Shown here one piece after another: positions 23,203-50,929 of a DNA stretch of 64,000 nucleotides; within the stretch, counting starts at the first letter, position 1, and each line of letters begins with the position of its first letter. The stretch spans positions 992,001-1,056,000 of the forward strand of contig JAMXDE010000022.1 of assembly GCA_026770025.1 (NCBI GenBank). Reading direction: 5' to 3'. This DNA is from Craspedostauros australis. Lineage: Eukaryota > Bacillariophyta > Bacillariophyceae > Mastogloiales > Achnanthaceae. A program made the translations under genes and the position numbers. The notes under the pieces are model-generated. The model had not been told where the DNA came from. It was given only the letters and a program-made list of their open reading frames with translations, and made no database searches.

Positions 23203-23204
23203 TA

Positions 23205-23276
23205 TTCTCCTGCCCGGATTCGAACCGAGGATGCTTGATTCAAAGTCAAGAGTGATAACCACTTCACTACAGGAGA
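23205..23276 (-). tRNA. tRNA-Gln (anticodon TTG)
   Basis: 72 nt including the discriminator base A. The acceptor stem is TCTCCTG/CAGGAGA. The anticodon stem CTTGA/TCAAG encloses the loop CTTTGAA, giving anticodon TTG. The T-arm carries GGTTCGAATCC (B box). No intron and no encoded CCA. Confidence 0.95.
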
Positions 23277-23729
23277 ATCAATTTGGCATATGTGGCGAAA
23301 AACAACATCATATACTGTGATTTGTTGAAGTGTAGCACAAGCGACAGGCTACTTCTTGTTGTCGAGCGCAAATGCTGAAAGGACAGGGGAGTCGAGAATC
23401 ACACATCCCAATCTCAGATTCGTTCAATCTGTTTCGGATGGACAGAGAGTAGAGTAGATCACTGCCTTTTCCTTGGTGATGATTGTGCACACCTTCAGCA
23501 AAATCGTCAGGAAGACTTGTATGCCCATTGTTCCATATCGTTCATGAGGCGACACTTGCCATCCGTTCCCCTCTTTCTCTGTTGGCATTCATGATCGTTG
23601 CTGTTTCTAATGAACGCCGGAAGACCTCTTCCTTTGCACAATACATTTGGAGACACATGTGACCGCAGCATGCGCCGACGGCTGCCAGCTTTGGCGCACG
23701 AATGAAAACGCATTGGAAACAACGCAGAG

Positions 23730-24705: not shown

Positions 24706-24960
24706 AGAGCTTCCTCCCACGTCATAATCTGGCCAGCGAACACTGCCGAGGTTGCCCTGACAACCAAGATCATGGGACAGTCATCAGCTCGCACGCGAAC
24801 TGTGCGTCATTTATGGAATAATAGTTGGGAATATATGGTCCTCGACTCCCCTGTCCACCCAGTAGTTGCGCTTGACAACAAGGAATAGCCTCTCAATTTT
24901 TCTGCGCTTCCACAACACACATTATTTAGTATTCATTTTCACCACATATCCCAAATTGAT

Positions 24961-25032
24961 TCTCCTGTAGTGAAGTGGTTATCACTCTTGACTTTGAATC
25001 AAGCATCCTCGGTTCGAATCCGGGCAGGAGAA
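24961..25032 (+). tRNA. tRNA-Gln (anticodon TTG), second copy
   Basis: Identical in sequence to the copy at 23205-23276 but on the plus strand: same TCTCCTG acceptor stem, TTG anticodon and B box. Confidence 0.95.
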
Positions 25033-25034
25033 TA

Positions 25035-43018: not shown

Positions 43019-43614
43019 GGTGAGATGATGATGATGGTGGTGGTGGTGAAGGGATGTGTGATATCGTGTGGGTATGCTATGTTTTGGCAGAGTGCGGTTG
43101 TCAAAACTTATGTGTGCCTCTTTTGTTTTTGTGAGCTGTTGACCGATCTATTCGTGTGAGCAACTCTGCGCACAATGTGGCTGCTTTGCTGTTGAAATGC
43201 AGGTGGCGACGAGAGATCTTGAAGATGGCTGCACATTCAAGATCGTGACACCCCTCCATGCTGACCATACTTGCGCAGCACGCCGGCTTGGTCTCCCAAT
43301 GTTACTCCCCATGAGCAGGATTTCCATTTTTGTGTTCCAGTCAACACCAGCGAACGCAGAATGGCAACAGCGAAGTGTCATTTCGCCCCGTCCTTTTCTC
43401 TCTGTCTCCTCGAAACTGCTCCACAAAAACGGATCGACATTTTCTGTTCCTTGTTTTCGTGGGCGTTGGATTGTTGGACTCGGCCCATTCCATTCCTCAA
43501 CGGAACAACGGTCGTGGCAAACGTGGTGGAGGAACCATGAATTCGTTGAGTCCGCGAATGATACTTGTGCGTTTACGGGAGCATGCACGGTGGCTGGGAC
43601 AAACAAGGGCGTAG
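43019..43614. other. Upstream region of the left secreted-protein gene, up to the copia insertion
   Basis: About 600 bp. A CAT/CAC trinucleotide run sits just before the ATG on the minus strand. Overlapping frames on both strands (43197-43625 plus, 43148-43720 minus) are not supported as genes; the latter runs into the LTR. Confidence 0.5.
43610..43614. repeat. Left target-site duplication (CGTAG)
   Basis: Matches the 5 bp directly after the 3' LTR (50925-50929). A 5-bp duplication is usual for copia integrases. Confidence 0.9.
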
Positions 43615-43857
43615 TGTTATCATGAATTAGTCCAGCTGATCGATACGACACCAAACCCGAACCAGCATGCCGCTGCGTCAGCAACGCCACGATTAGGAGC
43701 GCCCGCGACGCACGCAACATTTAGCGAACTTGACGCAAAGTCAAGACCACAGTAGAATAAGCTCACAATCCCATGGGACCTTCCATGGGCCCTCTCAATG
43801 GGCACAACTCAACTTTAGCACACACACACGCACTCACACACTTGCCCGTAGCAATTA
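43615..43857 (+). repeat. 5' LTR (243 bp)
   Basis: Begins TGTTATCATG and ends GCAATTA. It contains CCCATGGG-type palindromes (about 43771-43793) and a CA-rich microsatellite near its 3' end. Confidence 0.95.
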
Positions 43858-43879
43858 GGTTATGAGCCTGGACCGCAGG
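43858..43879 (+). promoter_or_regulatory. Primer binding site: half-tRNA(iMet) type
   Basis: The sequence directly after the LTR starts GGTTATGAGCCTGG. Its complement reads like the anticodon stem-loop of initiator tRNA-Met (loop CTCATAA with the CAT anticodon). Drosophila copia has the closely similar GGTTATGGGCCC at this place and primes from a cleaved tRNA(iMet) half, so the same priming is inferred. Confidence 0.75.
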
Positions 43880-43963
43880 CACTGCTTGTTCGTCACCTGC
43901 CGCACCACACGGTGCTAACTGCACCATGGCGAACGCGCTCCATCACAGCGATGCCGCGTGTGG

Positions 43964-46063
43964 ATGCACATTGCCGACAGCGACCAAAACACAAACAAAA
44001 CTCTCACCGTCGCAATCATCCAACACAAACAACAACACAACGCAAAGCTCATGGACACGCATCGTCAACAGACAACGAACGCAACCTCCTCCAGTGACAC
44101 AGACAACTCCGACCCGCCTTCGCTAGCAGAAGAGCCCGAAGTCGCACTCTCCGAGATCGCAGCCGACGACCCTGTCCCTCCTCTCGGACGACAACAACAA
44201 CAGGCAGAGACCGTAGCCGACGCACTCGTCCCTCCTCTCCAGCCACCTGAACAAGTCGAGACCGCAGCCGACATCACTGTCCCTCCTCTCGCACAGCAAC
44301 AACCTGAGACCGCAACACCTACCTCTCTTCATCAACAACCTGCAGCGACCGAGACTGCTCAAGCAACCTCTCCTCCTGCACCTCAAGAGACAGCACAGGA
44401 CCCAGGCGGACGCGCCTCTCCTTCTGTTTCAACAACAACAACACGAGCTGCACAGGACACCAGCACACAGGCAGCTGGCGTCTTCGCGCAGCAACCACAA
44501 CTTCCGCGTGACAGAACTCCTCTTCGGACAGAACCAGAACTTCTTCTGGCTGAAGGCGATATTCTGGACTTAACCTTGGACACTTTTGAATCCCAAGCCC
44601 TTGAGGAACTCCAGTCAGCCCTCGCAGATCCTGGCAACATTCGTCCTGGCATTTTTGCTGACACGAATCTCACTGTCAAAATTCCTGCTGATGTCACTGA
44701 CACAGTAACCGGTGAAACCGCCATTCCAACTGTTCGCGCGACCCACGTTTCGGCCTCATCCACGACTCGACCAAGGATGTCACGTTTCAGCGCGGATCCC
44801 GATGATGCGGCCACCCGAGCCAACAACCGTATCCTCATCACCAAGGAAGAACGCGCTGCACTCGAAGGCAAGGACCGCACCAAGGTCAGAGAACAAGCCG
44901 TTGAGCCTCTCGAGCCGCTCTTTGTGATGGTGAACCAAACCACTGCCATCAATGACAACAAGTTCCTCAAAAAGAACTATGACTTCGCCCGACTCAAGGA
45001 AAACCTCCGCAGCCGCCTCAAGATGTACTCAATGTACGAGCCATTCCAAATCATCCGATCCACTTGGAACGAGGCCGGGGATCTTGTCTTCGATCGAACC
45101 ACCGCAGACGATACCTTCATTGATCTGCTGGACAACGCGTTCACGCTCGACCAAGATGTTGTACTCCGTTCTACCGAGATCTACTCTCTCTTCGGTGGGA
45201 AAGTCAATCAGCAGAACCTCCAATGGTCGCTTGAGCTCATCCTTTCCTCTTGTGACGACTCTCTCATCGAAGCCATCGCTGCTCGCATGCAACAGATCCC
45301 AGAGGAGCTCCGCACAGGACCAATGGCCTACTACTTCATGGAATGCATCGCTGCAAGGACAACATCTGAAACTGCTCGAGCTATCACGAACAAGATCGCT
45401 CAGTTCAGGATGACCAACATCAAAAGTCAAAACATCGAAACATTCTGCCAGATCATGAGAGCAGCCATCCATCGAATCAAAGCCTCACTGCTTGGGATTC
45501 CAGCCGACATGAACGACATGCTCTTGAAGGTTATCAGAACCTGCACAAACAAGCCCTTTGTTGACTACTTCAACATGCGTGAAGCTGCCCTCGACGCAAC
45601 TGGCAACGACCCTTTCACTTGGGAACAAATCCTCGAAATGGCTCTGAAGAAGTACACCAGCCTCATCAATCAAGAGATATGGTTCGCTCCGACCAAATCC
45701 AAGAACACCCGATTCAGAGGCATCAGGAGCAAAGCCAACACCAACGTCAAGGACTCTTCAGGACGCAGCCGACCTTCCCCTGACCGCGGAGGTCAGCCCA
45801 TCGACTACACGCCTCCAAAGCAGGGCGAGGCACACGAGCGCACCACCCACGGCAAGACTGAATACTGGTGTGACCATGAAACCTGCAAACGATGGGGCAA
45901 CCATCCAACCGACGGACATGACGACTTCGTCTCTCGCCAACGCAACCGTCGCGGCCGAGGTAGAAAGGGATCCTCAAACAACTCCAACAAGCAAACGGAA
46001 CCAAAAGGGAACGACAACGAAACTCGCAAGCTTTTGAGATTCTCTGAACAAGAGGGTTTTTAA
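43964..46063 (+). CDS. gag: Copia gag (capsid/nucleocapsid polyprotein)
   Basis: 699 aa from the ATG at 43964; the next in-frame ATG at 44051 (MDTHRQQ) is also plausible. The first ~200 residues are Pro/Gln/Glu/Thr-rich and disordered. The middle is a helical capsid-like region (FLKKNYDFARLKENLRSRL, then IPEELRTGPMAYYFMECIA). Near the C-terminus is a Cys/His knuckle, YWCDHETCKRWGNHPTDGH (C-x4-C-x5-H-x4-H), followed by Arg/Gly-rich sequence, fitting nucleic-acid binding. It ends with TAA at 46061-46063, directly after the GGGTTTT heptamer. Confidence 0.9.
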   Translation: MHIADSDQNTNKTLTVAIIQHKQQHNAKLMDTHRQQTTNATSSSDTDNSDPPSLAEEPEVALSEIAADDPVPPLGRQQQQAETVADALVPPLQPPEQVETAADITVPPLAQQQPETATPTSLHQQPAATETAQATSPPAPQETAQDPGGRASPSVSTTTTRAAQDTSTQAAGVFAQQPQLPRDRTPLRTEPELLLAEGDILDLTLDTFESQALEELQSALADPGNIRPGIFADTNLTVKIPADVTDTVTGETAIPTVRATHVSASSTTRPRMSRFSADPDDAATRANNRILITKEERAALEGKDRTKVREQAVEPLEPLFVMVNQTTAINDNKFLKKNYDFARLKENLRSRLKMYSMYEPFQIIRSTWNEAGDLVFDRTTADDTFIDLLDNAFTLDQDVVLRSTEIYSLFGGKVNQQNLQWSLELILSSCDDSLIEAIAARMQQIPEELRTGPMAYYFMECIAARTTSETARAITNKIAQFRMTNIKSQNIETFCQIMRAAIHRIKASLLGIPADMNDMLLKVIRTCTNKPFVDYFNMREAALDATGNDPFTWEQILEMALKKYTSLINQEIWFAPTKSKNTRFRGIRSKANTNVKDSSGRSRPSPDRGGQPIDYTPPKQGEAHERTTHGKTEYWCDHETCKRWGNHPTDGHDDFVSRQRNRRGRGRKGSSNNSNKQTEPKGNDNETRKLLRFSEQEGF

Positions 46064-49000
46064 AGGCAGCTTTCATTGTCGTAAGTCCGATCCTGCTATT
46101 CCCATCTCTCCTCTGGCACCTGCTCGCATCCACATTCACAGCATACGTCCTGGCATTATCCGCCAACTGTCACCAAACCTTAAACCACGTCAACATCATG
46201 CGCGGACGCAAGAACCATCGAGTCTGTCGCTCCAAAGCACCACCGACCATATTTGCCTCAACGCAACGTATGAGGATGGGCTTCTGGAGTCGTCTCTTCC
46301 TTCTATCCGCTGTAATGATCCCATCGACGACACTATTCTTCCTTTCAACTCTCACTACCGATCGCTGGAAACACCCACAACGCTTTTACAACAAACACCA
46401 GCCTCTCGACTACGATCAACTGCTCTTTGGCGACGGATGGAACGACGAGCACACACGCAAGAACGACCCGCTGCCAGCTCACTTCCTTCATCTCTCCGGA
46501 TTCCATGATGAGTTTGACTCATTCATGATGAACCGACGCATTGCCGCAGATGCCCAACAACGCGCAATGTCTCTACCTCCGTCTCAACCAAAGCACTGCT
46601 TTTCGATCACTCCATCTTTCTTCACCCTTCAGTCAGATAAACTTCGAACACAGGTGCAAGCCGTCTCCTATCTGGCCTCCACTGCCTATGAAGCATCCAA
46701 AGCACCGAACTTCATGGACGTTCTCGTCTCCCGTCACTACCATACTCCCGGTCTCACCAACAAGCGCGCCATGTGTCCCATCATCCTCGACACTGGGTGC
46801 TCATTCTCCATGACATATCGAAAGGAGGACTTTATCACAGGACCACATCTCGGTAATTTCGGAGACATCCAAACAGCAAGCGGCAAACTTCAAATCTCTG
46901 GCATAGGCACCGTCCAATGGCAAGTGCTATCCCTGAACGGAAACATCGCACCTGTCCGAACCAGAGCACATTACGTGGAGGAAGCACACATCCGCCTCTT
47001 CTCTCCGCAAGCCTACGCTCAATACCACAGCATCAAGACCGATCGCCAACCATATTACGGAGACACGGAATCCTTCTCATTCGCGTTGGAGGATGGCAGC
47101 GTAATGAACTGTCCTATCCATCCATTCACGAATATTCCGACCGCATTGGCGCGCGATCCTCAACACCAACTTGCAGACAAACCGGATGCAATACCCTGCC
47201 GATGCAAGTCTCACACTTGTTTTGAATGCCAAATCACCCACGCTCTACCATCCGTCCTGTCACCCGCAAACGAGAACCTCACCGCAAATCAGAAACAACT
47301 GCTACTGGATCATCAACGCTTTGGACATCTCGGAATGGATCATGTGAAACAACTTTATCGACTCACACGCAGAGTAAGACGTCTCTCCGGACCTGCGCAA
47401 AGATGGATTGAGACCCCTTGCCTTCCAGGGCGAGGAAAGGGACCTGCCAACTGCATCAACCCACTCTGCCAAGCCTGCGCCATCGCAACGGCCAAGCGTC
47501 GACCAATACCCACGAGAACCTCACATCCATCCGAAGACCAACGCCCAATTGCTCCAAACGCAACCAAACCAGGTCACCTCGTCTCTGTGGATCACTACCA
47601 CGTTGCAGTGAAAGGACGCCTCGAACACACCAAAGGGCGTGAACCCGTATCCAGCAAATATGTTGGCGGAACCATCTTCTACGACAGCTACAGCGGGTTC
47701 ATCCATACCTTCCATCAGGTATCTCTCGGCGCACACGACACCATCCAAGCCAAGAACGACTTCGAGTACATTGCCAGCCAGAGCAACGTGTCCATCAAGA
47801 TGTACCATACGGACCAAGGCTCTCTCTCCTCTCGCGCCTTCCGCGAATCGTTGACTGCCAATCAGAGCATCCGGTTTGCGTCACAAGGAGCGCACCATCA
47901 AAATGGAGCTGCAGAGGTCGCTATCCGAGTCATCATGAACAGGGCAAGAGCAATGCTCATTCACGTCAGCCTCCACTGGCCCGATCAATTCGATGTCGAA
48001 CTTTGGCCGCTCGCAGTCACCTACGCCACCTGGACATACAACCACATTCCGCAGCGAAACTCTAACAGCTCTCCCATGGCAAAGTTCACGGGATCTGATG
48101 ACAGCTGTGTGATGCTCCAGCGATCGCGCGTATGGGGTTGCCCAGCATACGTCCTGCATAAGAATCTCCAAGACAAGAACAAGATTCCAAAATGGGAAGC
48201 AAGAGCTCGTATGGGCCAATTCCTTGGCTTCAACCGCGAGTTCTCCTCAACCGTCGCATCCATCCTCAATCCTCGTACCGGCCACATCAGCAGTCAATAT
48301 CACTGCGCCTTCGACGAACGCTTTTCTACCATCGCAACAACCGACGACGGAAAAGACGACATCGACCCCAACTGGCATGACATCATCCGTTTCGAAAGCG
48401 ATAACTACGCCGAAGACCACGATGAAGACATCGACGGACCTCTGCCTGACGCAGATCCCGAATTCATGACCGACGAAGAAAGAGAAGAATGGAATCGCCA
48501 GCATCGCCCCGAACCACGCATGCCTCCGCTCATTCATCCGCCGGTAACAATCATCAGAAACGACGACGACGACGGATTCGTCCCTCGCACATCACCCGAT
48601 ACAAGCATCCATGATCTGCCGCCTGGCACCGAAGTGGACAGCGGCGACGAGGACAACAACGCCGGCATACCGCTACCAGATCCTTCCCTTGACAATGAAA
48701 ACAACACTGGCATGCCACAGCCAGAGCCACCAACGGCCGAAGACAACTCTCCAGTCAGACGATCTCGATCCGGACGACGCATTCGCAGACCCGCTCGCTA
48801 CCGTCAGAACGAAGCAACCTCTCGCAACACCGTCTTTCATAGCATTCATGCTCTCTGCCGCGGGCGCGGACCTCGACCACAGACATCACCACTCTTCTTC
48901 CAAAACCTCAATTGGGACATCAACGACAACTTCGACATCCCAAGCCGCTACCAGATCCTACTGGAAGCATCTACCAGTCCAGCTCTCAACGAAATCTACG

Positions 49001-50658
49001 ATATGGACCCTCTCATCCTCCAAGCCAAAGCGCATGATGACGATCATCCATCTCTTGCCGACGTTCTGAACTGCCCTGACCTAAACGAACGAGCCACATG
49101 GCGAAAAGCAATGAACACTGAAATCGAACAGCTTCTCGACAAGAAGACATTCCGCGTGGTTCCTCGGTCAATGGCAATCAACCACGAAATCATCCCTTCA
49201 ACCTGGGTCTTTCGTCGCAAGAGATTCCCAGATGGATCCATTATGAAGCTCAAAGCTCGTCTCTGCGTACGAGGAGACCAACAGCAACGAACAGGGCGAG
49301 ACAGAAATGAAACGTTAGCTCCCGTTGTTGAATGGAGCTCCATCCGTCTGATATTCGCACTGATGATCGAACATGGACTGCACACTCAATCAATTGACTT
49401 CAAAAATGCATTTGTTCAATCTCATCTGCCTGCTCCAATCTACATGCTTCCTCCTCCTGGACCAATTCCTATCAACAACCCAAACATTCCAGAGAAGGAC
49501 CGCCCTATTCTACAAGTCAACAAGAGTCTTTACGGCGACCGAAGAGCACCACGCCTGTGGTACGAACATCTTCGCGACGCCCTCATCAGCGACAAATTCG
49601 GATTCAGAATGGCCGAGCAAGATCCCTGTCTGTTCCTCAAGAGCAACATCATCATTTGCGTCTACGTGGATGATGCAATCCTCTGTGGCACAACGATGGA
49701 AATCGTTCAATCGACTATCCAACAGCTACATCAAGAAGGTTTTGACCTCACATGCAAAGGAGATCTCTCTGCATACCTCGGTATAAAGATTGAGAAATCC
49801 AACGATGACCAAATCAAACTTTCTCAGCCTGGCCTCACAGCCAAAGTCATTGAATCCCTCGGACTGCAACAAGAATCCTCCCGCGTAATTCCAGCAGACG
49901 CCACTCTTGGTAAGAATCCAGACGCCGATCCCATTTCCAATCAATTCAACTACAGATCCGTATTGGGAATGATGATGTATCTTGGCACGAACACAAGACC
50001 AGACTGCGCATTTGCCATCAATCAGTGCGCTCGATTCAGCCATGATCCGAAACATCCTCATGAACTCGCACTCAAACGCATTGGACGCTACCTCCTTGGA
50101 ACGAAAGACCAAGGCATCCAAGTCAAGCGATCAGCAATCGGCTCCATGGACTGCTATGTCGACGCCGACTTTGCCGGAGTTTGGGGAAAGGAAGATCCTC
50201 AAGATCCCAACTCCGTCCGATCCCGCACTGGATTCATCATCACCCTTGGTAACATGCCCATCATTTGGAAATCGAAGATTCAGTCCAAAATCGCCATGTC
50301 AACACAAGAAGCAGAGTACATTGCACTCTCAACCGCAATGAGATCAGTCATACCTCTCAAGAACGCTCTCAAACAACTCATGCACGCCTTCCACATCAAA
50401 TCAACGGCAGAATCAGAACTGACCACCATCTTCGAGGATAACCAAGCTGCCATCACCTTAGCAACAACGAAGCCGCCGCGGATGACACCAAGATCAAAAC
50501 ACATCGCCATCAAATACCATTGGTTTCGATCTCACCTCAAGAAAGGATCCTTCGAAATCAAGTACATCGATTCAACTCTTCAGAAAGCCGACATCATGAC
50601 AAAGCCATTGGCGCGAGCCAAATTCGTGGCAGCCCGAAAGCTGATCATGGGTTGGTAA
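46048..50658 (+). CDS. pol: Copia pol: protease, integrase, reverse transcriptase, RNase H
   Basis: Open in the -1 frame relative to gag; the first ATG is at 46198 (1486 aa from there). Order: a hydrophobic N-terminal segment (WSRLFLLSAVMIPSTTLFFL); aspartic protease with ILDTGCSFSM (~46784); integrase zinc region HQRFGHLG and CINPLCQAC, then the D,D35E core (VSVDHYHV, MYHTDQGSLSS, HHQNGAAEVAIRV). Next come an acidic linker and reverse transcriptase with WVFRRKRFPDGS, QSIDFKNAFVQS, the active site VYVDDAILCG and the QEGFDLTCKGDLSAYLGIKI block. RNase H follows with CYVDADFAG, STQEAEYIALS, FEDNQAAITLA and RSKHIAIKYHWFR. All catalytic residues I can identify are intact. Confidence 0.95.
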   Translation, partial: TRGFLKAAFIVVSPILLFPSLLWHLLASTFTAYVLALSANCHQTLNHVNIMRGRKNHRVCRSKAPPTIFASTQRMRMGFWSRLFLLSAVMIPSTTLFFLSTLTTDRWKHPQRFYNKHQPLDYDQLLFGDGWNDEHTRKNDPLPAHFLHLSGFHDEFDSFMMNRRIAADAQQRAMSLPPSQPKHCFSITPSFFTLQSDKLRTQVQAVSYLASTAYEASKAPNFMDVLVSRHYHTPGLTNKRAMCPIILDTGCSFSMTYRKEDFITGPHLGNFGDIQTASGKLQISGIGTVQWQVLSLNGNIAPVRTRAHYVEEAHIRLFSPQAYAQYHSIKTDRQPYYGDTESFSFALEDGSVMNCPIHPFTNIPTALARDPQHQLADKPDAIPCRCKSHTCFECQITHALPSVLSPANENLTANQKQLLLDHQRFGHLGMDHVKQLYRLTRRVRRLSGPAQRWIETPCLPGRGKGPANCINPLCQACAIATAKRRPIPTRTSHPSEDQRPIAPNATKPGHLVSVDHYHVAVKGRLEHTKGREPVSSKYVGGTIFYDSYSGFIHTFHQVSLGAHDTIQAKNDFEYIASQSNVSIKMYHTDQGSLSSRAFRESLTANQSIRFASQGAHHQNGAAEVAIRVIMNRARAMLIHVSLHWPDQFDVELWPLAVTYATWTYNHIPQRNSNSSPMAKFTGSDDSCVMLQRSRVWGCPAYVLHKNLQDKNKIPKWEARARMGQFLGFNREFSSTVASILNPRTGHISSQYHCAFDERFSTIATTDDGKDDIDPNWHDIIRFESDNYAEDHDEDIDGPLPDADPEFMTDEEREEWNRQHRPEPRMPPLIHPPVTIIRNDDDDGFVPRTSPDTSIHDLPPGTEVDSGDEDNNAGIPLPDPSLDNENNTGMPQPEPPTAEDNSPVRRSRSGRRIRRPARYRQNEATSRNTVFHSIHALCRGRGPRPQTSPLFFQNLNWDINDNFDIPSRYQILLEASTSPALNEIYDMDPLILQAKAHDDDHPSLADVLNCPDLNERATWRKAMNTEIEQLLDKKTFRVVPRSMAINHEIIPSTWVFRRKRFPDGSIMKLKARLCVRGDQQQRTGRDRNETLAPVVEWSSIRLIFALMIEHGLHTQSIDFKNAFVQSHLPAPIYMLPPPGPIPINNPNIPEKDRPILQVNKSLYGDRRAPRLWYEHLRDALISDKFGFRMAEQDPCLFLKSNIIICVYVDDAILCGTTMEIVQSTIQQLHQEGFDLTCKGDLSAYLGIKIEKSNDDQIKLSQPGLTAKVIESLGLQQESSRVIPADATLGKNPDADPISNQFNYRSVLGMMMYLGTNTRPDCAFAINQCARFSHDPKHPHELALKRIGRYLLGTKDQGIQVKRSAIGSMDCYVDADFAGVWGKEDPQDPNSVRSRTGFIITLGNMPIIWKSKIQSKIAMSTQEAEYIALSTAMRSVIPLKNALKQLMHAFHIKSTAESELTTIFEDNQAAITLATTKPPRMTPRSKHIAIKYHWFRSHLKKGSFEIKYIDSTLQKADIMTKPLARAKFVAARKLIMGW
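46054..46060 (+). promoter_or_regulatory. Probable -1 ribosomal frameshift site GGGTTTT
   Basis: In the gag frame the heptamer reads G GGT TTT, the X XXY YYZ form of a -1 slippery site, and the next codon is the gag stop TAA. The -1 frame opens after a TGA at 46045-46047 and then runs without a stop through all of pol to 50658. The only window for a productive shift is therefore 46048-46063, which the heptamer occupies. Confidence 0.75.
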
Positions 50659-50671
50659 CGCATGCAACACC

Positions 50672-50681
50672 TGAGGGCGAG
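50672..50681 (+). promoter_or_regulatory. Purine-rich tract before the 3' LTR
   Basis: TGAGGGCGAG lies directly before the 3' LTR and is the expected plus-strand primer position. It is short and interrupted by one C. Confidence 0.55.
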
Positions 50682-50924
50682 TGTTATCATGAATTAGTCC
50701 AGCTGATCGATACGACACCAAACCCGAACCAGCATGCCGCTGCGTCAGCAACGCCACGATTAGGAGCGCCCGCGACGCACGCAACATTTAGCGAACTTGA
50801 CGCAAAGTCAAGACCACAGTAGAATAAGCTCACAATCCCATGGGACCTTCCATGGGCCCTCTCAATGGGCACAACTCAACTTTAGCACACACACACGCAC
50901 TCACACACTTGCCCGTAGCAATTA
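50682..50924 (+). repeat. 3' LTR (243 bp)
   Basis: Same length as the 5' LTR and no difference found by eye. Followed by the right target duplication CGTAG (50925-50929). Confidence 0.95.
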
Positions 50925-50929
50925 CGTAG
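50925..50929. repeat. Right target-site duplication (CGTAG)
   Basis: Pairs with 43610-43614. Confidence 0.9.

What the first reader, a model, noticed from the sequence alone, without database searches (positions are those of the whole stretch)
46045..46066. Copia pol is reached by a GGGTTTT -1 frameshift directly before the gag stop
The gag frame ends G GGT TTT TAA. The -1 frame is closed by TGA at 46045-46047 and then open to 50658. Many Ty1/copia elements use one frame or splicing, and Ty1 uses +1. A -1 slippery heptamer abutting the stop would be an unusual expression strategy that sets the Gag:Pol ratio. Seen: frames, stops, heptamer. Inferred: that ribosomes shift here.
Basis: partly seen in the sequence, partly recalled or inferred. 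Interest (0 to 1): 0.7.

Follow-up and report, generated by a model that had tools for sequence, protein, structure and literature searches.

The report
Conserved -1 frameshift site in copia retrotransposon
In an algal (probably diatom) jumping gene, the ribosome very probably slips back one base just before the end of the coat-protein gene to make a small share of coat-polymerase fusion, and the slip site has been kept while the genes around it changed greatly.

Summary
Gag ends GAG GGT TTT TAA (46052-46063); the -1 frame is closed by TGA at 46045-46047, then open to 50658; G_GGU_UUU is in phase against the stop. It is not a broken copy. Of 13 junctions read in this clade, 12 (nine of this family, three of a sister with RT 67% and Gag 33% identical) keep GGGTTTTTAAAGGC; the exception is decayed. 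That 14-mer occurs 12 times in the 74.8-Mb genome, always at these junctions. In both families variable sites switch from gag third positions to -1-frame third positions there (P about 6e-16 and 1e-14). The overlap is 16 nt with one canonical slip site. Programmed -1 frameshifting is strongly supported; a downstream structure is not. Other copia clades of the genome join gag and pol by one frame or an in-frame TGA, by eye at the corresponding place, so the linkage seems to have turned over. In 7 of 9 pol starts examined, a hydrophobic, membrane-helix-like stretch follows the junction, suggesting, without proof, that in recoded families only Gag-Pol carries a membrane anchor. New variant of a known kind; slippage itself is unmeasured.

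The parts
43615..43857 (+). 5' LTR, 243 nt, identical to the 3' LTR; 5-bp target duplication CGTAG at 43610-43614 and 50925-50929
43858..43868 (+). probable primer binding site GGTTATGAGCC (half initiator tRNA-Met type, as in Drosophila copia)
   Evidence: sequence; the tRNA match is recalled, not tested
43958..46063 (+). gag open frame (first ATG 43964; true start not tested), ending GAG GGT TTT TAA; no Pfam match; zinc-binding-like C/H motif at 45863-45928
   Evidence: its part from -1574 on under selection in this frame
46045..46047 (+). TGA closing the pol (-1) frame 9 nt before the heptamer
   Evidence: at -9 in 11 of 12 copies, at -177 in L081
46054..46060 (+). slippery heptamer G_GGU_UUU (X_XXY_YYZ) in gag phase
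   Evidence: kept in 12 of 13 junctions read (missing in decayed L069)
46054..46067 (+). 14-nt core GGGTTTTTAAAGGC, identical between two families with 33% Gag identity; 12 occurrences in the genome, all gag/pol junctions
46061..46063 (+). gag stop TAA directly after the heptamer
46082..46084 (+). second in-frame gag stop TAA (+28), inside GTAAGY, present in 12 of 12 copies checked
46048..50658 (+). pol open frame (-1 to gag), 1536 codons; PR DTG 46783-46803, IN Zn motif 47311-47478, RVT_2 49144-49896, RNase H motifs 50299-50454
   Evidence: short motifs named from recall
46057..46125 (+). hydrophobic stretch at the very start of Pol (holds the 19-residue Kyte-Doolittle maximum of the whole Pol, 2.09)
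46279..46353 (+). second hydrophobic stretch of Pol (Kyte-Doolittle 1.77)
50682..50924 (+). 3' LTR

Best explanation
This is a young Ty1/copia LTR retrotransposon whose Pol is made by programmed -1 ribosomal frameshifting at G_GGU_UUU directly before the gag UAA. Most ribosomes read GGU UUU UAA and stop, giving Gag. A fraction slip back one base with tRNA-Gly and tRNA-Phe re-pairing on GGG UUU, then read UUA AAG GC.. into the 1536-codon pol frame, giving Gag-Pol. Shown: the two frames, the phase, the 16-nt overlap, conservation of the site across two strongly diverged families, and a switch of the selected frame at the site. Inferred: that ribosomes slip, the efficiency, and dual-tRNA slippage rather than a P-site UUU slip while UAA waits in the A site. 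What stimulates slippage is not shown; no structure next to the site beyond chance was found, so the adjacent stop, or a distant interaction, may matter.
For: Frames and phase. GGGTTTTTAAAGGC with split frames in 9 of 9 window-family copies and 3 of 4 sister-type copies, while Gag is 33% and the pol start 32% identical; ungapped nucleotide identity window against L070 is 22% in the 60 nt before, 35% in the 106 nt after, and 14 of 14 in the core. The 14-mer's 12 genome occurrences are these junctions. Variable columns in four window-family copies: 65 of 91 at gag third positions upstream, 54 of 77 at pol third positions downstream, switch P 6e-16; in three sister copies 40 of 57 and 63 of 86, P 1e-14. 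Rare codons at the site: TTA is 5 of 123 Leu in window pol and 1 of 114 in the sister, the latter being the site itself; TTA also holds the gag stop, so this is not independent of it. G_GGU_UUU is listed among the shiftiest -1 heptamers on mammalian ribosomes (PMC5009743, passage). In PEMV the BYDV sequence GGGUUUU gave 112% of wild type, and replacing the stop near the slip site with a sense codon cut shifting by 72% in vitro (PMC4737148, passages).
Against: No stimulator next to the site: 120-nt fold z = 0.35 in the window element and -0.9 to -1.5 in the three sister copies; 40-nt folds z -0.7 to 0.4 in five copies. Sister 100-nt folds reach z -1.3 to -2.1 through a hairpin about 40 nt downstream, which the window element does not share (z +2.6). 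A simple H-type pseudoknot scan found none in 7 of 7 sequences, but its shuffles found none better or equal only trivially, so it has little power. One copy of the clade (L069) lacks the canonical heptamer (GTT TTT CAA) yet keeps the -1 relation; its pol looks broken, as the frame holding RT opens only about 2 kb after the junction. Four of the nine window-family copies (L003, L004, L005, L007) show no substitutions between them over the region compared, so there are six lineages, not nine. No RNA or protein data.
Confidence: 0.9

Rival explanations
1. Pol is translated on its own, by termination-reinitiation or internal entry at an ATG (first pol-frame ATG 46198), or from a spliced pol mRNA, without a Gag-Pol fusion.
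For: An in-frame ATG exists 48 codons into the pol frame of the window element. Tca2, a copia element with a UGA between gag and pol, showed no readthrough in S. cerevisiae (PMC2194720, passages).
Against: The first pol-frame ATG is not at a shared place: codon 48 in the window, 94 in 3 of 3 sister copies, 56 in L069. No ATG lies from 40 nt before to 60 nt after the heptamer start in the window element; sister L070 has three just before it (-17, -10, -7), none in the pol frame. The stretch between heptamer and first ATG shows pol-frame third-position bias, 10 of 17 variable columns over both families, P 0.027 (weak, and 5 of 10 in the sister alone is not significant). It would not explain the 14-nt core.
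Confidence: 0.04
2. Splicing (or RNA editing) joins gag and pol in one frame in some transcripts.
For: A donor-like GTAAGT (GTAAGC in the sister) sits at +27, the only GTRAG from -2000 (window) or -1400 (three sister copies) to +1200 around the site. Drosophila copia uses splicing for its Gag (PMC2194720 background passage).
Against: That donor lies after the gag stop, so using it cannot fuse the frames; it could at most make a gag-only RNA. Its conserved core is also the second gag-frame stop TAA, which gives another reason for its conservation. No GTRAG or GTATG lies upstream of the stop within those ranges in the window or the three sister copies; decayed L069 has one at -631. Other donor types and the 5' leader were not scanned.
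Confidence: 0.03
3. Transcriptional slippage at the G3-T5-A3 run makes a minority of RNAs in the pol frame.
For: The run of five T followed by three A is conserved with the site.
Against: A run of five T is short, and reaching the -1 frame needs one added or two lost bases. The conserved part includes the GGG that tRNA-Gly re-pairing needs and the exact gag phase. None of this excludes it.
Confidence: 0.03
4. The split frame is a decayed or mis-assembled single-frame element.
For: Other copia clades of the same genome have fused frames (L082, L073, L074).
Against: 12 of 13 junctions share the split and the site and the 13th keeps the split; the selected frame switches in both families; the LTRs are identical over 243 nt with a 5-bp target duplication.
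Confidence: 0.005

Closest known systems
BYDV (Luteovirus) and umbravirus -1 frameshift sites: slippery heptamer just before the ORF1 stop
   Same: BYDV's slip sequence is GGGUUUU; in umbraviruses the slip site lies just before the stop, and that stop helps shifting in PEMV (PMC4737148, passages). That UAG directly follows GGGUUUU in BYDV is recalled.
   Different: An unrelated kind of element. BYDV, RCNMV and PEMV have a bulged hairpin with a 5-nt spacer and a long-distance pairing (same passages); no comparable local structure was found here.
Ty1, Ty2 and Ty4 of S. cerevisiae (Ty1/copia)
   Same: Gag and Pol in different frames, with inefficient frameshifting giving excess Gag (PMC7175516, passage on Ty1-4).
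   Different: The yeast elements shift +1; here the shift is -1 at a retrovirus-like heptamer.
Tca2/pCal of Candida albicans (Ty1/copia, gag-UGA-pol)
   Same: A Ty1/copia element with a stop between gag and pol (PMC2194720, passages); organised like the TGA clade L075-L079 of this genome.
   Different: In-frame stop rather than -1 shift; readthrough of Tca2 was not seen in S. cerevisiae.
CoDi Ty1/copia elements of diatoms (Maumus et al. 2009)
   Same: Diatom copia; [quoted passage not shown]
   Different: No slip site, direction or recoding test appears in the sections and passages I saw; the table is a supplementary image I could not read.
-1 frameshift LTR elements (retroviruses and other LTR elements)
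   Same: Same signal type: 28 of 51 surveyed animal LTR elements have pol in -1, many with classical heptamers (review PMC5009743, passage, citing a 2003 survey). Two S. [quoted passage not shown]
   Different: Neither passage names Ty1/copia elements among these; the held part of the review contains no 'copia'.

Membership tests
Programmed -1 ribosomal frameshift site | X_XXY_YYZ heptamer in 0-frame phase inside the ORF overlap | tested here: met
   G_GGU_UUU at 46054-46060, overlap 46048-46063
Programmed -1 ribosomal frameshift site | Downstream ORF in the -1 frame and under selection in that frame | tested here: met
   pol-third variable columns 54 of 77 (window family) and 63 of 86 (sister)
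Programmed -1 ribosomal frameshift site | Site conserved between diverged relatives | tested here: met
   12 of 13 junctions of the clade; core 14 of 14 against 22-35% flanking identity
Programmed -1 ribosomal frameshift site | Downstream stimulatory structure (common, not an absolute requirement) | tested here: inconclusive
   No stem next to the site beyond shuffles; the pseudoknot scan had little power; Rfam gave only two matches far under cut-off. Long-distance pairing not tested.
Programmed -1 ribosomal frameshift site | Measured frameshifting | not testable with these tools
   needs reporter or ribosome profiling
Ty1/copia (Pseudoviridae) | RVT_2-type RT and PR-IN-RT-RH order | tested here: met
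   RVT_2 E 2e-40, SH3_retrovirus before it; PR, IN, RT, RH motif order (motifs recalled)
Ty1/copia (Pseudoviridae) | LTRs, target duplication, tRNA primer site | tested here: met
   243-nt identical LTRs, 5-bp duplication; the tRNA identity of the primer site is recalled
CoDi (diatom copia groups) | Clustering with reference CoDi RTs | not tested
   no reference CoDi sequences available; host judged diatom-like only from neighbours
BYDV-type frameshift element | Slip site before stop plus bulged hairpin plus long-distance pairing | tested here: not met
   slip site and stop present; local hairpin not found; distant pairing not tested

The most novel reading that the evidence does not exclude
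In these elements recoding gates a membrane anchor as well as an enzyme. The first residues past the recoding site form a hydrophobic, helix-length segment, so Gag is soluble while each Gag-Pol is tethered to a membrane, which could seed particle assembly or enzyme packaging at a membrane. The anchor site stayed fixed while the linkage turned over among -1 slippage, a UGA codon and an open fusion.
Probability: 0.3. Interest if true: 0.7.

Novelty: new variant of a known kind. Interest (0 to 1): 0.52.

Why it matters
It gives a Ty1/copia clade in which Gag:Pol control by a -1 heptamer is supported by selection data rather than by a single sequence, so the strategy known from retroviruses and other LTR elements appears in this superfamily too. 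Because other clades in the same genome use a fused frame or an in-frame TGA at what looks like the corresponding place in the polyprotein, the genome is a natural comparison for asking how recoding modes replace one another and what Gag:Pol ratio each gives. The hydrophobic start of Pol suggests a testable membrane role for Gag-Pol.

Tried and rejected
Downstream structure: 120-nt folds, a home-made H-type pseudoknot and hairpin scan (it scored zero for all 7 sequences and shuffles did no worse, so it has little power), 40/60/100-nt folds with shuffles and Rfam gave no stimulator next to the site beyond chance. The sister copies have a hairpin about 40 nt downstream (100-nt z -1.3 to -2.1) that the window element lacks. 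A weak 5-6 bp stem (GGCRG with CTGCY) appears in several folds of window and sister copies, but it is no better than shuffles and one pair is lost in L008. Conserved splice donor at +27: considered as a copia-like gag mRNA signal; downgraded because its TAA is also the conserved second gag-frame stop. A second heptamer, T_TTA_AAG, overlaps the site but in pol phase; I take it as a by-product. The lack of variable columns from -8 to +38 in the window family is not significant (about 2.5 expected), and the sister family has two there. First phase test used all nine copies, including L008 (decayed 5' part) and indel-bearing L004 and L007; it was noisy (gag-third 156 of 367, pol-third 64 of 92). 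For one search I dropped L004, L005, L007 (no substitutions against L003) and L008, and L081 from the first test because it is shorter; the second test with L081 gives P 6e-9. L008 and L081 were included. Relatives elsewhere: two viral-contig scans gave none; one genome-contig scan gave one fused copia contig (L088). Gag identity: no Pfam or PDB sequence match (weak rows at E 0.06 to 0.5 taken as chance), so 'gag' rests on position and a C/H motif. L080 has an in-frame TGA, but a second stretch fetched to check it (L087) did not show the same junction, so it is left open. L073 was put in the hydropathy run, but its stretch holds only Gag, so it is not a test of a pol start.
Full report
WHAT IS THERE. 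The window lies in a 74.8-Mb, 90-contig eukaryotic genome. Neighbouring genes include a PAP_fibrillin protein, a kinesin, an MBOAT protein and a DUF6824 protein, which fits a photosynthetic stramenopile, probably a diatom; this host call is inference. At 43615-50924 lies an LTR retrotransposon with 243-nt identical LTRs and the 5-bp target duplication CGTAG. Its second frame carries RVT_2 and an SH3_retrovirus domain and the motif order protease, integrase, RT, RNase H (motif names recalled), so it is Ty1/copia. The first frame has no Pfam or PDB sequence match and is called gag from its position and a zinc-binding-like motif.

THE JUNCTION. Gag ends GAG GGT TTT TAA (46052-46063). The -1 frame is stopped by TGA at 46045-46047 and then open from 46048 to 50658. 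G_GGU_UUU at 46054-46060 is in the phase required for simultaneous -1 slippage, after which the ribosome reads UUA AAG GCA into pol. A -1 shift must fall within the 16-nt overlap 46048-46063. In-phase canonical heptamers are rare: 2 of 700 positions in gag and 2 of 462 in the sister gag, one of each directly before the stop. A second gag-frame TAA follows at +28.

CONSERVATION. A DNA search of the genome found nine copies of this family, a lower bound by the tool's own statement. An RT search listed four sister-type loci at 67-69% identity; I read all four junctions. All nine window-family copies and three of the four sister-type junctions have GGGTTTTTAAAGGC and the gag-frame TAA at +7 and again at +28; the pol-frame TGA lies at -9 in 11 of these 12 and at -177 in L081. 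Not all of the nine are intact in the stretches held: the gag frame upstream is interrupted in L004, L007 and L008, and pol in L004 and L007. The fourth sister-type locus, L069/L046, reads GTT TTT CAA; there gag runs on to the second stop while pol stays in the -1 frame, and its RT lies in a frame that opens only about 2 kb after the junction, so pol looks broken. Between the families Gag is 33% and the pol start 32% identical, and ungapped nucleotide identity (window against L070) is 22% in the 60 nt before and 35% in the 106 nt after the core, against 14 of 14 in the core. The 14-mer occurs 12 times in the genome, each at one of these junctions; the reversed control pattern occurs once. Of the nine window-family copies four show no substitutions between them over the compared region, so they represent six lineages.

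SELECTION SWITCHES FRAME AT THE SITE. In four distinct window-family copies, 65 of 91 variable columns upstream are at gag third positions and 54 of 77 downstream are at pol third positions (switch P 6e-16); in three sister copies 40 of 57 and 63 of 86 (P 1e-14). Both frames are therefore maintained as proteins and the change of frame is at or near the heptamer. An earlier run with all nine copies, including decayed ones, was noisier. Restricted to the stretch before the first pol ATG the pol-frame signal is weaker: 5 of 7 in the window family, 5 of 10 in the sister, together 10 of 17, P 0.027.

ALTERNATIVES. The first pol-frame ATG is at codon 48 in the window and 94 in the three sister copies, which speaks against internal initiation; L070 has three ATGs just before the heptamer, none in the pol frame. 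No GTRAG or GTATG lies from -2000 (window) or -1400 (three sister copies) up to the gag stop, though decayed L069 has one at -631; the one shared donor-like GTAAGY at +27 is downstream of the stop, where it cannot fuse the frames, and it contains the second stop. Other donor types and the leader were not scanned. Transcriptional slippage and editing cannot be excluded from DNA.

STIMULATOR. None found next to the site: z 0.35 for 120 nt downstream in the window element and -0.9 to -1.5 in the three sister copies; 40-nt folds z -0.7 to 0.4. The sister's 100-nt folds reach z -1.3 to -2.1 through a hairpin about 40 nt downstream, while the window element gives +2.6, so no shared structure is seen. 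A simple pseudoknot scan found nothing in 7 of 7 sequences but has little power. G_GGU_UUU is listed among the most shift-prone heptamers on mammalian ribosomes (PMC5009743, passage). In the umbravirus PEMV, changing the native slip site to the BYDV sequence GGGUUUU gave 112% of wild-type shifting, and replacing the stop just after the slip region with a sense codon reduced shifting by 72% in vitro (PMC4737148, passages). An adjacent stop may therefore be part of the signal here; that is inference.

OTHER LINKAGES IN THE SAME GENOME. Of ten further junction stretches fetched, one (L081) is a window-family copy. The other nine fall into one-frame elements (L073, L074, L082), elements with an in-frame TGA between gag and pol (L075-L079), and L080, which has an in-frame TGA but was not confirmed in a second copy. 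For one TGA family, 16 of 16 genome occurrences of the last 24 nt of gag are followed by TGA. On an RT tree of 15 rows the -1 rows, the fused C/D rows and the TGA rows (without L080) form separate supported groups (100/98, 100/99 and 100/97); the tool warned that some long branches meet. The junction lies at a comparable place in the -1, TGA (E/F) and fused (L082) families: a short acidic stretch ending in an aromatic residue, then a hydrophobic stretch (judged by eye).

HYDROPHOBIC START OF POL. In window pol the most hydrophobic 19-residue stretch of all 1536 residues is residues 4-22 (Kyte-Doolittle 2.09), with a second at 84-102 (1.77). Sister L070 has 2.64, L069 2.49, L077 2.25 and 1.93, L078 2.22 and 1.91, L079 1.56, fused L082 2.44: 7 of 9 pol starts examined. 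The other two, L075 and L080, have none above 1.0; L073 was run too, but its stretch is Gag only. The gag sequences of window, L070 and L077 peak at 1.02 or less. A copia contig filed in a Desulfobacterales MAG (L088, fused frame) has two such stretches (2.14, 2.08), placed near the gag/pol boundary only by distance from RT. No membrane predictor was available and structure prediction was off, so 'membrane anchor' is a hypothesis.

LITERATURE. In Maumus et al. 2009 (PMC2806351; [quoted passage not shown] the details are in an image I could not read. Tca2 has an in-frame UGA (PMC2194720, passages). Ty1-Ty4 have pol in +1 (PMC7175516, passage). S. [quoted passage not shown] Passages of PMC5445492, PMC3587641, PMC7017206 and PMC2774666 gave no slip site. 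A search for copia, frameshift, slippery, gag and retrotransposon together gave one paper, on a retroviral search tool (listing only). I found no described -1 slip site in a Ty1/copia element in these searches (mostly listings), but the key 2003 survey is not held, so priority is not claimed. For the hydrophobic start of Pol the searches were made; only their listings were seen.

VERDICT. Observation confirmed; interpretation supported; new variant of a known kind (a -1 heptamer abutting the stop, in Ty1/copia), with the turnover of linkage and the hydrophobic Pol start as the more novel leads.

Noticed in passing
L075-L079 (own genome C8, C14, C2, C62, C4): A separate copia clade of the same genome has an in-frame TGA between gag and pol; for one family 16 of 16 genome occurrences of the gag end are followed by TGA.
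   Followed up: partly
46057-46125 and 46279-46353; also L070, L069, L077, L078, L079, L082, L088: Hydrophobic, membrane-helix-like stretches at the start of Pol, just after the gag/pol junction, in several copia clades.
   Followed up: partly
46081-46086: GTAAGT (GTAAGC in the sister) at +27: donor-like, and it contains the second in-frame gag stop.
   Followed up: partly
own genome C8:2582016 and 2604732; C19:3373 and 26090: Two pairs of copies without substitutions between them and with the same spacing (about 22.7 kb), near a contig end and a contig start, suggesting a duplicated or haplotype stretch.
   Followed up: no
23204-23277 (-) and 24960-25033 (+): Two tRNA-Gln (TTG) genes of equal score on opposite strands, 1.7 kb apart.
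   Followed up: no
L088 (JAAXQD010000085.1): A copia element sits in a contig filed as a Desulfobacterales MAG, with the same peptide at both contig ends: probably a eukaryotic contaminant assembled as a circle.
   Followed up: no
L069 (C59): Decayed sister-type copy in which the first gag stop is lost and gag runs to the conserved second stop.
   Followed up: partly
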